Assembly: GCA_028285035.1 (NCBI GenBank)
Contig: JANQQF010000094.1
Span: forward strand, 1-64,000
Reading direction: 5' to 3'
Origin: Phycisphaerae bacterium
GTDB lineage: Bacteria; Chloroflexota; Anaerolineae; 4572-78; J111
Length of the DNA stretch: 64,000 nt
The translations under genes were made by a program, and so were the position numbers. Under the pieces are notes generated by a model. It was not told the origin of the DNA, searched no databases, and saw only the letters and a program-made list of their open reading frames with translations. Positions 5,016 to 9,459 of the stretch are shown here, piece after piece. Position 1 is the first letter of the stretch; the number at the start of each line of letters is the position of its first letter.

Positions 5016-5051
5016 GTGTTAAATTATTTAAGATATGGAGGAAGAGAGCTA

Positions 5052-5588
5052 ATGACAGTTCAAATAAAATCAATGAAACCTGAAGACTGGTCCGCCGTTC
5101 GCAAAATATATGAGAGTGGGATTGCAACGGGATTGGCGACCTTCGATACATCTACACCAACCTGGCCAGTTTGGGATGAGGATCACTTACAAATCGGTCG
5201 ATTAGTTGCTAAGACTGATGGCAACATTTTAGGTTGGGCGGCGCTCAGTCCCGCCTCCAGTAACTGAGGCTACGCTGGTGTCGCTGAGGTCAGCGTCTAT
5301 GTAAGTGAGCAGGGGCAAGGGCAGGGCATTGGGACGGCTTTGTTGGTCGCTTTGATTGAAACCTCCGAGGCTGAAGGGGTTTGGACATTACAAGCTGAAG
5401 TAATGGCTGAAAACAAAGCCAGTTGTGCCCTACATCGAAAATGTGGCTTTCGTGAGGTGGGCTATCGGGAGCGAATTGGGCACATCAATAATGTCTGGCA
5501 CGATGTAATTCTGTTTGAACGACGTAGCAAAATTGTTGGTGGCCCAAATTTAGCAACAAAAAAGTGTGATAAACAACAAGTGACCTAA
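5052..5588 (+). CDS. GNAT acetyltransferase (PAT/YwnH-like) with in-frame TGA: selenoprotein candidate or nonsense allele
   Basis: A 178-codon frame encoding a phosphinothricin-acetyltransferase-like GNAT protein, interrupted once by TGA at 5265-5267 (codon 72). Start at ATG 5052 is supported by an upstream GGAGGA. Before the TGA the protein shows MKPEDWSAVRKIYESGIATG and GWAALSPASSN; after it, in the same frame, GYAGVAEVSVYV, the acetyl-CoA loop QGQGIGTALL and the late motif ALHRKCGFREVGYRE. Total length and every other motif are normal. From memory, many relatives read SPVSSRCVYAGVAEVSVYV, which puts Cys at the TGA. A hairpin follows the TGA at 5282-5295. Readings: selenocysteine, a recent nonsense mutation, or a base-call error. 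Members of this family acetylate glufosinate-like or methionine-sulfone-like amino compounds. Confidence 0.7.
5282..5295 (+). promoter_or_regulatory. SECIS-like hairpin downstream of the in-frame TGA
   Basis: CGCTG (5282-5286) pairs perfectly with CAGCG (5291-5295) around loop AGGT. The loop starts 19 nt after the TGA and has G at its second and third positions. This fits the general description of bacterial selenocysteine insertion elements (short apical stem, G early in the loop, about 16-37 nt from UGA) and resembles the GGUC loop of E. coli fdhF. A competing 6-bp stem (ACGCTG with CAGCGT, 5272-5296) is possible. The codons also encode the conserved AEVS motif, so coincidence is not excluded. 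Confidence 0.35.
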
Positions 5589-6820: not shown

Positions 6821-7651
6821 TTAAGGCTGCACACCTTGAGCCAAACGTGTTTCAATTTGCTCAATAATCTGCGGCAAATCGGCCACTGTATTGGCGACAA
6901 AATGAGCCCCTTCTGCGGCCAGGGTTTGCTTCGCCCGCATAATGCGTTGATCTTGTTCGGCGACAGGTAGGGCAAATAACTCCTCCTGCGATAAGCCAAC
7001 TTCATTTCCGGTTTGGGCCACCCCCATTGCCCAAACTCCAGCATTCAACGCAACTTGAATATCGGGCTTGGTATCCCCAACCTTGACAACGGCTTGCGGG
7101 GGATACACATTTAGTTCATTCATTGCCCGATAAATCATCCAAGGGGCAGGGCGTCCGGCTGAGACTTGGGTGGCGCAAATGCTAAAGTCAGGGGTGTATC
7201 CTTGGTCAGCCCCGTCATTGCGACAAATTTCCATGGCCTCATCAAAGTAACCTGTAGTACCTGCTACTTGAATACCGCGCTCTTTTAGATAATTAACAGT
7301 GTCAGTGACTCCAGGGATTAGCTTGGTGTAACGTGGCAGAATTTCGAGCAGCACTGGCACAAAATCGTTGTACATCTCATCGACATCAGCATCATTAAGA
7401 TCACGACCATGCACTTCACGCCACTGCGCCGCGACTGGGGCCATCTGGCCAATGGTCTTGATGTGCTCCCATTTACCCATCCCCATCGGCGCTCGTGCTT
7501 GAGCAACTGAGATTTCAATATGTTTACGGCGAAAACCTTCAATAAACGCCGCCGCCGGGGCACGACTGCCATAATCAATCATCGTGCCTGCCCAATCAAA
7601 AATAACTAGTTTTATCGATCCTTGATATGACCGTCGAAAGACAAATTCCAT
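6821..7651 (-). CDS. phnX: Phosphonoacetaldehyde hydrolase
   Basis: A 276-residue HAD-superfamily enzyme that cleaves the C-P bond of phosphonoacetaldehyde to acetaldehyde and phosphate through a Schiff base. The nucleophile Asp19 is in VIFDWAGTMIDYG and the imine-forming Lys60 is in MGMGKWEHIK, with the same spacing as Asp12 and Lys53 of the Bacillus cereus enzyme. TGYFDEAM and VKVGDTKPDIQ supply the later HAD motifs. Length is typical. The ATG at 7651 follows AAGGGG. It is the second step of 2-aminoethylphosphonate breakdown after PhnW, encoded upstream on the same strand, with a decayed gene between them. Confidence 0.95.
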   Translation of the reverse strand: MEFVFRRSYQGSIKLVIFDWAGTMIDYGSRAPAAAFIEGFRRKHIEISVAQARAPMGMGKWEHIKTIGQMAPVAAQWREVHGRDLNDADVDEMYNDFVPVLLEILPRYTKLIPGVTDTVNYLKERGIQVAGTTGYFDEAMEICRNDGADQGYTPDFSICATQVSAGRPAPWMIYRAMNELNVYPPQAVVKVGDTKPDIQVALNAGVWAMGVAQTGNEVGLSQEELFALPVAEQDQRIMRAKQTLAAEGAHFVANTVADLPQIIEQIETRLAQGVQP

Positions 7652-7674
7652 TTTGAAAACCCCTTCAATAATAA

Positions 7675-8305
7675 TTAAGGTTGTTTGTTTAAATTTTTTA
7701 ATACCCCAAAAGCAATGTCGTGAATTTTAGCAATATGCTCATCCGTTTGGTGCCGTTAGCTCGAAAAGCAGAGCGATAATCGATGATTGTCCCGTTGGTA
7801 AAAGAAAGGGCGCATAATGGTCCATCACCCAGTACCTGAGCGGTGATATTGAGTTCAGTTAAAATGTCACAGAAACCTTGCCGAAGCGTCTCGCCGATCA
7901 CAAAAATTTTTCGCATAGTATAGACTTGCGCATTTCAGCCTCGGATTACCACCCACCGAGGAAGCAAGCTACACATAATTGAATTGTCTCAACTCAGCTT
8001 CAGCACAAAACCCCATAATATCAGCGCGGCCCACAATGGCACCGATGGGGTAACCACCACCTAACCCTTTGCCAAGGGCAGCCAGGTCAGGGGTGACCCC
8101 ATAGTAGCTTTGCGCCCCACCATAGAATGTTGTGATCTTGGGTGATTTGGCGAAGTCCTTGTAGGAAGCCGGGTAGGGGAGTAGTACATCAATGCAGCGG
8201 TTCAACAATCACAGTGGCAAGCTCTGGGAGTGCTCTTCGATGATACGGGTCCCCAGCCCATCATTAAATCGATGTATTCTCGGCCCAGCGTGTCATAAAC
8301 CTTGG
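7675..8305 (-). pseudogene. Decayed class III aminotransferase-fold gene, possibly pbfA
   Basis: Pieces of one PLP-dependent enzyme can be read in order but in different frames, with stops and deletions: an N-terminal VYDTLGREYIDLMMGWG (about 8245-8300), [10 protein letters not shown] (about 8190-8225), a central stretch [21 protein letters not shown] with [16 protein letters not shown] (about 8005-8130), LRQGFCDILTELNITAQVLGDGP (about 7820-7885), and a C-terminal DEHIAKIHDIAFGVLKNL ending at TAA 7675. About half of a normal 430-residue protein remains. In phnW-phnX clusters such a gene often encodes PbfA, which converts 1-hydroxy-2-aminoethylphosphonate to phosphonoacetaldehyde; that identity is inferred from location. 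Confidence 0.75.
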
Positions 8306-8313
8306 AGCATTCC

Positions 8314-9459
8314 TCACTTCAACTCAACATTCATTTCGGCCAAAACCTCTCGGATGGCGGCCAAAAGATGTCGAACATCTGCCTCGAAAATTCGACCAAT
8401 GTTCCCAATCCGGAAACAATCGGCATCGCTAACTTTGCCGGGATAGATGACCAAATCACGTTGATTTAGCAGGCTATAAAATTGACCAAAATCAAAGTTT
8501 GGGTGATTGGGGTAGTGAAAGGAGGTGATAACATATCCTTGATTTTCGGGCGTGAGATATTCCGTGAAGCCAAGCTGTCGCATCCCCGCTAAAAGAATGT
8601 CGTAGTTGTGCTTGTAACGTGCCCCGCGCCCAGCCACACCACCTTCGGCATCTAACTCTGCTAAAGCTTGGGCAAAGGCCAGTAGGGCGTGGGTGGGTGG
8701 GGTGAAGCGAAATTGCCCATTTTTCTCAAAGCCTCGCCATTGAGCCAGCAAATCCAAACTCATACTACGGGCATACCCCTCAGTCTCAAGCAGGGCTGCG
8801 CGGCGGGTGAGGACAAAGCTAAATCCTGGCACACCCTCGATACATTTATTGGCAGAAGAGACTAGGTAATCGATGTGACAGTCCGCCAAATTGATGGGGA
8901 TTGCTCCGAAACTACTCATCGCATCAACAAAGTACCGTTTACCAAATTGCTGGGCTAGCTGCCCGATGGCTTGAATGGGGTTGATAATGCCTGTGGTCGT
9001 TTCACAATGGACGATGGCGATGTGGGTGATCGTTGGGTCCTCTTTTAAGGTGGTTTCAATTGAGGTTAGATCTGGGGTTTGGTTCTCCAAAAATTCCAGA
9101 GCGTCGGTCTCAATGTTTAGAATTTCAGCCATCTGCTTCATCCGCTTGCCATAAGCCCCATTGATGATAAGTAGCCATTTGCCATTGGGCGGGGTAAAGG
9201 ATGAAAAAACGGCCTCAATGCCAAAGGTACCGCTGCCTTGCACCAAAATCGCTTCGTAATCTTGATTAGCCACATCTTGGCCAGCTACCTCCCCAATTTC
9301 AAGTAACTGTTGACGAATGTGTTTGATCGTCTGAATAAACTCAAAATCGCGTGATCCTAAATCCCGTAACAGGGCTTGCTTCACAGTTTGACTTGTGGTT
9401 AGTGGGCCGGGGGTGAAGAGGACTTTATCTTTCCAACCCGAAATTTTTAATTCAGCCAT
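8314..9459 (-). CDS. phnW: 2-aminoethylphosphonate:pyruvate aminotransferase
   Basis: A 381-residue class V PLP-dependent aminotransferase converting 2-aminoethylphosphonate and pyruvate to phosphonoacetaldehyde and alanine. Family signatures are [10 protein letters not shown] near the N terminus, [31 protein letters not shown], and the PLP lysine in [13 protein letters not shown]. Length is normal (family about 365-380). ATG 9459 is preceded by GGGAGAACT. It is separated from the upstream regulator gene by an intrinsic terminator. Its product is the substrate of PhnX encoded downstream; together they release phosphate, nitrogen and acetaldehyde from 2-AEP. Confidence 0.95.

What the first reader, a model, noticed from the sequence alone, without database searches (positions are those of the whole stretch)
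5052..5588. GNAT acetyltransferase gene intact except for one in-frame TGA at a probable cysteine position
Seen: a full-length PAT/YwnH-like GNAT frame with promoter and ribosome site, no frameshift, and 107 sense codons after TGA at 5265-5267, including the acetyl-CoA loop QGQGIGTALL. Known from memory: many relatives have Cys in SSRCVYAGVAEVS, one base from TGA. Inference: a selenocysteine-containing acetyltransferase, or a very recent nonsense mutation. A Cys-to-Sec change would be novel for this family as far as I know.
Basis: partly seen in the sequence, partly recalled or inferred. Interest (0 to 1): 0.8.

Follow-up and report, generated by a model that had tools for sequence, protein, structure and literature searches.

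The report
Acetyltransferase gene with premature stop codon
An ordinary bacterial acetyltransferase gene carries one stop codon in its middle, most likely a recent gene-breaking mutation or a sequencing error; a selenium-containing enzyme is not ruled out, but no relative that was read has the same codon there.

Summary
Frame 5052-5588 encodes an ArsN1a/PAT-like GNAT with one in-frame TGA at codon 72 (5265-5267) and an otherwise intact frame. The host looks like an Anaerolineae-type Chloroflexota; its genome is not held. Its relatives decode selenocysteine: in the nearest family's 12 genomes selB is over cut-off in 8, selA in 10, and selD contains an in-frame TGA in 8. The hairpin after the TGA fits the published bacterial SECIS model. 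So the idea deserved testing. Against it: 776 of 4000 synonymous recodings pass the same strict hairpin test. Column 72 is tolerant, not catalytic: Cys in 21 of 74 Chloroflexota hits, 13 residue types, no TGA. The nearest clade has Trp, Leu or Gly there, Cys in 0 of 34. A search of 5.8 billion proteins with the 71-residue product found only itself. An aminotransferase remnant lies 2 kb away. Best reading: a young nonsense allele or a base error in an ordinary gene, 0.87; selenoprotein 0.06.

The parts
5037..5041 (+). Shine-Dalgarno-like GGAGG, 10 nt before the ATG
   Evidence: read directly from the sequence
5052..5588 (+). GNAT acetyltransferase frame (ArsN1a/PAT-like), interrupted once
   Evidence: translation; Pfam PF00583 59.8 bits; NCBIfam ArsN1a 129.1 bits, below its cut-off of 170
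5265..5267 (+). in-frame TGA, codon 72
5282..5295 (+). hairpin CGCTG-AGGT-CAGCG, 19 nt between TGA and loop; fits the bacterial SECIS model, as do 776 of 4000 synonymous recodings
   Evidence: model as quoted from PMC13188914
5602..6726 (+). pectinacetylesterase-family gene that starts 13 nt after the GNAT frame ends; cotranscription is inferred from the spacing only
   Evidence: Pfam PF03283 63.6 bits; spacing
7652..8313 (-). class-III aminotransferase remnant in the 662-nt gap between phnX-like and phnW-like genes
   Evidence: Pfam PF00202, E 1.9e-7, 30.6 bits, profile positions 244-297 of 403, one frame; frames printed; neighbours named by NCBIfam over cut-off

Best explanation
This is an ordinary GNAT N-acetyltransferase gene of the ArsN1a / phosphinothricin-acetyltransferase kind, in an Anaerolineae-type Chloroflexota, with one premature UGA. 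UGA would act as a stop and give a 71-residue product that ends before the acetyl-CoA-binding motif and is presumably inactive. The stop is young (a recent nonsense substitution, perhaps a strain polymorphism; about 0.57) or is a base-call or assembly error (about 0.30), because the rest of the frame has not decayed. Shown: the TGA, the intact frame, the tolerance of the column, the absence of TGA in the relatives read. Inferred: that translation ends there, and that the event is recent.
For: UGA is a normal stop in this DNA: 7 of 45 long window ORFs that I picked end in TGA, and these ORFs use 230 TGG codons. 0 of 74 distinct Chloroflexota hits have TGA at codon 72; 12 further lower-scoring hits were not read base by base but are reported without internal stops. 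The search with the 71-residue product returned only itself, 1 of 1 candidate. The nearest clade has Trp 30, Leu 3, Gly 1 at the column, and most of its members share the query's Gly73 and its GGPxLxTxKC-like tail. Column 72 takes 15 residue types over 233 relatives. The frame is undecayed: 0 of 22 conserved columns changed before the TGA and 1 of 37 after it. An aminotransferase remnant lies 2 kb away, and a relative in another genome of the class is a decayed copy with TGA at codon 131 and no recognisable N-terminal half (L195).
Against: The host's family decodes selenocysteine. The hairpin passes the same strict SECIS test as 9 of 9 selD and fdhA elements of that family, and its apical part folds better (-7.7 kcal/mol) than the same stretch of each of 33 homologues (0.0 to -5.7). 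0 of 33 homologues pass the strict test. 149 of 233 relatives have Cys at the column. The downstream frame is intact. No reads were available, so mutation and base error cannot be told apart.
Confidence: 0.87

Rival explanations
1. A selenocysteine-containing GNAT: SelB and tRNA-Sec read UGA72 with the help of the hairpin at 5282-5295, giving a full-length enzyme with Sec in the loop before strand beta-4, near the substrate gate.
For: In the nearest family's 12 genomes selB is over cut-off in 8, selA in 10, a tRNA-Sec match of 56 bits or more is found in 8, and selD has an in-frame TGA in 8. The hairpin meets the model quoted in PMC13188914: loop AGGU, 5 bp, spacing 19 nt, MFE -14.7 kcal/mol, and its apical part is the most stable among the query and 33 homologues. 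Cys is the commonest residue at the column in the broad family (149 of 233).
Against: No second UGA homologue found. Cys absent in the nearest clade (0 of 34) and in the three relatives with E <= 1e-35 in the nearest order (His, Phe, Arg). 776 of 4000 synonymous recodings pass the strict hairpin test and 1192 the lenient one. The hairpin folded alone (-6.6 kcal/mol) is weaker than each of five family selD/fdhA hairpins folded alone (-8.5 to -13.3). The ArsN1/PAT mechanism described in PMC6465285 uses an acidic residue and water as base; the word cysteine does not occur in its main text (passages).
Confidence: 0.06
2. Base-calling or assembly error: the living cell has a sense codon at 72. This is the second part of the best explanation and its share of the 0.87, listed apart because it has its own test.
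For: A single-base difference would be enough in an otherwise undecayed frame. The 71-residue product is a singleton from one contig of 156,250 bases. PMC1088965 sets single-sequence candidates aside for this reason (passages).
Against: No direct evidence. A gene remnant nearby suggests that real decay also occurs here.
Confidence: 0.3
3. A true stop with low-level near-cognate readthrough, typically by Trp-tRNA, which would insert the residue of the nearest clade and keep a little full-length enzyme.
For: Trp is the nearest-clade residue (30 of 34). That UGA readthrough in bacteria usually inserts Trp is recalled, not looked up.
Against: Nothing in the sequence demonstrates readthrough.
Confidence: 0.04

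Closest known systems
ArsN1 / PAT-like GNAT acetyltransferases (NCBIfam NF040503; PDB 5jtf, 5wph, 6m7g, 9igk, 1yr0)
   Different: NF040503 score 129.1 is below its cut-off of 170; one premature UGA; Asn71 and Gly73 where most of the 120 relatives have Arg and Val.
Unnamed GNAT clade with a GGPxLxTxKC-like tail (P0024, P0038, P0047, P0050, P0122-P0150, P0174)
   Same: Groups with the query (support 0.957 on midpoint-rooted FastTree trees, query residue 72 masked); most members share the tail and Gly73.
   Different: Residue 72 is Trp 30, Leu 3 or Gly 1 of 34, never Cys.
Selenoprotein genes of the nearest family: selD (AKCAGU) and fdhA (DHCARLU)
   Same: In-frame UGA followed by a hairpin with a G in the first two loop positions, 16-37 nt away.
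   Different: Stems of 5-7 bp, loops GTT, GTG, GGTCT or CGTGT; the selD TGA recurs in 8 of 12 genomes, the GNAT TGA is a singleton.
Known bacterial selenoprotein families
   Same: UGA in a family with many Cys homologues.
   Different: The word acetyltransferase does not occur in the main texts of PMC13188914, PMC12013277, PMC1088965 or PMC1794560, nor GNAT in PMC13188914.

Membership tests
GNAT acetyltransferase | GNAT fold with acetyl-CoA motif A | tested here: met
ArsN1 family A (NF040503) | score over NCBIfam's curated cut-off | tested here: not met
   129.1 bits vs 170
Bacterial selenoprotein gene | hairpin fitting the bacterial SECIS model | tested here: met
   Controls for the strict form: 776 of 4000 synonymous recodings, 61 of 2745 window TGA triplets, 0 of 33 homologues, 9 of 9 family selD/fdhA genes
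Bacterial selenoprotein gene | at least two homologous sequences with the UGA conserved (criterion in PMC1088965) | tested here: not met
   0 of 74 distinct genomic hits; N-terminal product search found only itself. Called proteins (199) cannot show a stop. Metagenome contigs could not be scanned.
Bacterial selenoprotein gene | UGA aligned with Cys in more than half of the homologues | tested here: inconclusive
   149 of 233 overall, 21 of 74 in Chloroflexota, 0 of 34 in the nearest clade
Bacterial selenoprotein gene | selA, selB, selC and selD in the same genome | not testable with these tools
   no genome held for the window; present in most genomes of the nearest family
Bacterial selenoprotein gene | Sec at the place of a catalytic, usually redox-active Cys | tested here: not met
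   column 72 accepts 15 residue types over 233 relatives; no cysteine is mentioned in PMC6465285

The most novel reading that the evidence does not exclude
A selenocysteine-containing GNAT acetyltransferase in a Sec-decoding Chloroflexota: Sec sits beside the substrate-gating loop of an ArsN1a-like enzyme. It would be a selenoprotein in a superfamily that none of the four selenoproteome papers searched here mentions, arisen in one lineage whose nearest relatives carry Trp, not Cys, at that place.
Probability: 0.06. Interest if true: 0.75.

Novelty: already known. Interest (0 to 1): 0.15.

Why it matters
If the selenoprotein reading were true it would extend selenocysteine to a transferase family with no redox step. 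As it stands the case is a caution: Sec machinery in the clade, a Cys-rich alignment column and a model-conforming SECIS hairpin can coincide on a stop codon that no relative read here shares, since coding of the conserved AEVSVYV stretch gives such a hairpin in about one of five synonymous versions.

Tried and rejected
Reassigned code (UGA = Trp): rejected, since 7 of 45 picked long ORFs end in TGA and 230 TGG codons are used. Frameshift at the TGA: rejected, one frame throughout. Restart after the TGA: the first start codon listed in frame is the TTG at 5340, behind the QGQGIG motif, so the product would lack it (inference). Neighbour synteny: neither the pectinacetylesterase nor the arylamine acetyltransferase was found in 33 GNAT loci of 1967-3513 bases (lengths), too short for a firm negative.

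Searches that gave nothing: genome contigs with P0001, viral contigs with A2, Rfam at gathering scores, tRNA genes, papers on selenoprotein plus GNAT (0 papers); one search gave one paper on frameshifting, seen as a listing. The plasmid tblastn gave 1489 records, all under 60% identity; none was fetched or read for codon 72. One search gave 60 matches in 24 of 28 genomes; codon 72 was read in five (L081-L085), the others have E above 1e-12 and are reported without internal stops. Of the 68 matches, 12 were not read. All 18 matches were read. The loop lists printed are wrong (script bug); the structures shown there stand, and the test was redone. The 75 rows hold one repeat (L198 = L138), so 74 distinct hits.

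Papers: passages found by term in PMC13188914, PMC12013277, PMC1088965, PMC1794560 and PMC6465285; the other papers were seen as listings with the start of the abstract only. No supplementary file was read.

Full report

Where it comes from. No genome is held for the window. Among 396 genomes of the class of a Chloroflexota MAG, the window's FtsK-like protein has its best matches, 67-71% identity over nearly full length, in eight genomes; all eight belong to one family of 12 held genomes, one of which is the genome of an Anaerolineae MAG. That the host belongs to or near this family is inferred from this one protein. The product of the first 71 codons is recorded from one contig of 156,250 bases.

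Does the host group decode selenocysteine? Very probably. In those 12 genomes selB is over cut-off in 8 and selA in 10. A tRNA-Sec match of 56 bits or more is found in 8 (scores near the cut-off of 47 are unreliable, as 5 of 14 control genomes exceed it while only 2 have selB over its cut-off). selD carries an in-frame TGA in 8: seven full-length genes, read as AKCAGU, and one gene split over two places whose TGA I did not read. Two fdhA genes with TGA were also read.

Is there a SECIS? The RNA after the TGA folds into CGCUG-AGGU-CAGCG with 19 nt between UGA and loop. The model quoted in PMC13188914 asks for a loop of 3-9 nt, a stem of 4-16 bp, a G in the first two loop positions, a spacing of 16-37 nt and an MFE of -7.5 kcal/mol or lower (passage). 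The query passes, as do 9 of 9 selD and fdhA elements of the family. My strict form adds a G followed by G or U at the loop start, a stem of 5 bp or more and a loop of at most 6 nt. Controls: of 2745 TGA triplets on both strands of the window, 61 pass the strict and 227 the lenient form; of 33 Chloroflexota GNAT homologues, 0 and 7; of 4000 random synonymous recodings of the following 20 codons with the window's codon usage, 776 and 1192. In favour of a SECIS, the query's apical stretch folds better (-7.7 kcal/mol) than the same stretch of all 33 homologues (0.0 to -5.7); against it, the hairpin alone (-6.6) is weaker than five family elements folded alone (-8.5 to -13.3). I count the hairpin as weak support, because the conserved AEVSVYV coding gives it readily.

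Is codon 72 a cysteine position? In the broad family often: 149 of 233 aligned relatives (199 proteins from two searches whose lists were capped at 120 of 8000 scored, the second seeded with the nearest clade, plus 34 genomic hits). But the column accepts 15 residue types. In 74 distinct Chloroflexota hits of 30-61% identity it is Cys 21, Ala 15, Pro 10, His, Arg, Leu and Ser 4 each, Gln, Asp and Glu 3 each, Phe, Ile and Trp 1 each, and never a stop. The three relatives with E <= 1e-35 in the nearest order have His, Phe and Arg. The clade that groups with the query (34 sequences, support 0.957, midpoint rooting) has Trp 30, Leu 3, Gly 1, and most members share with the query Gly73 and a GGPxLxTxKC-like tail. 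Trp is thus at least as likely as Cys to have been the last sense residue (inference). In PpArsN1, Arg75 and Arg77 gate the substrate site and the acid is Asp85 (PMC6465285, passages). If the query's Glu79 corresponds to that acid without gaps (my inference), codon 72 directly follows the gate. No thiol role is reported there.

Do relatives share the UGA? None found. Besides the 74 hits, 12 lower-scoring matches were not read but are reported without internal stops. The 71-residue product searched against 5.8 billion proteins returned only itself (the search needs shared five-residue words, so distant truncated relatives could be missed). Metagenome contigs could not be scanned. Among the 74, the only stop before residue 160 is in L195, a TGA at codon 131, in a copy without a recognisable N-terminal half.

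Is the gene decayed? No: 0 of 22 conserved columns are changed before the TGA and 1 of 37 after it; the medians of all sequences are 0 and 1. This fits a young nonsense change, a base error or recoding and does not separate them. The neighbourhood does show decay: in the 662-nt gap between a phosphonoacetaldehyde hydrolase gene and a 2-aminoethylphosphonate transaminase gene, one frame matches a 63-residue piece of a class-III aminotransferase; further pieces in other frames are by eye only.

Verdict. Each piece that makes selenocysteine attractive (machinery in the clade, Cys in the broad family, hairpin) has an explanation without it, while a shared UGA was not found and the column does not behave like a catalytic Cys. 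PMC1088965 sets singletons aside as candidates because of possible sequencing error (passages). I put 0.87 on an ordinary gene with a premature stop (about 0.57 recent nonsense, 0.30 base error), 0.06 on a selenoprotein, and the rest on low-level readthrough or something unforeseen.

Noticed in passing
window 7652-8313, - strand: Class-III aminotransferase remnant between a phosphonoacetaldehyde hydrolase gene (6821-7651) and a 2-aminoethylphosphonate transaminase gene (8314-9459): a probable phosphonate-use cluster with a decayed member.
   Followed up: partly
In G335 selD is split over two neighbouring places.
   Followed up: partly
protein clusters P0050, P0140, P0139, P0144 and relatives: The nearest GNAT clade occurs as many clusters from mostly very short contigs, two of them with over 300 members, as if from a multicopy or cassette-borne gene; origin unknown.
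   Followed up: no
L195 (G360, contig 307): Another GNAT of the family without a recognisable N-terminal half and with TGA at the codon aligned to the nearly invariant Cys131: an independent decayed copy.
   Followed up: partly
plasmid collection: GNATs related to the read-through query are common on plasmids: 1489 records match, 1051 of them Klebsiella; the 20 rows listed are 56.6-57.2% identical.
   Followed up: no
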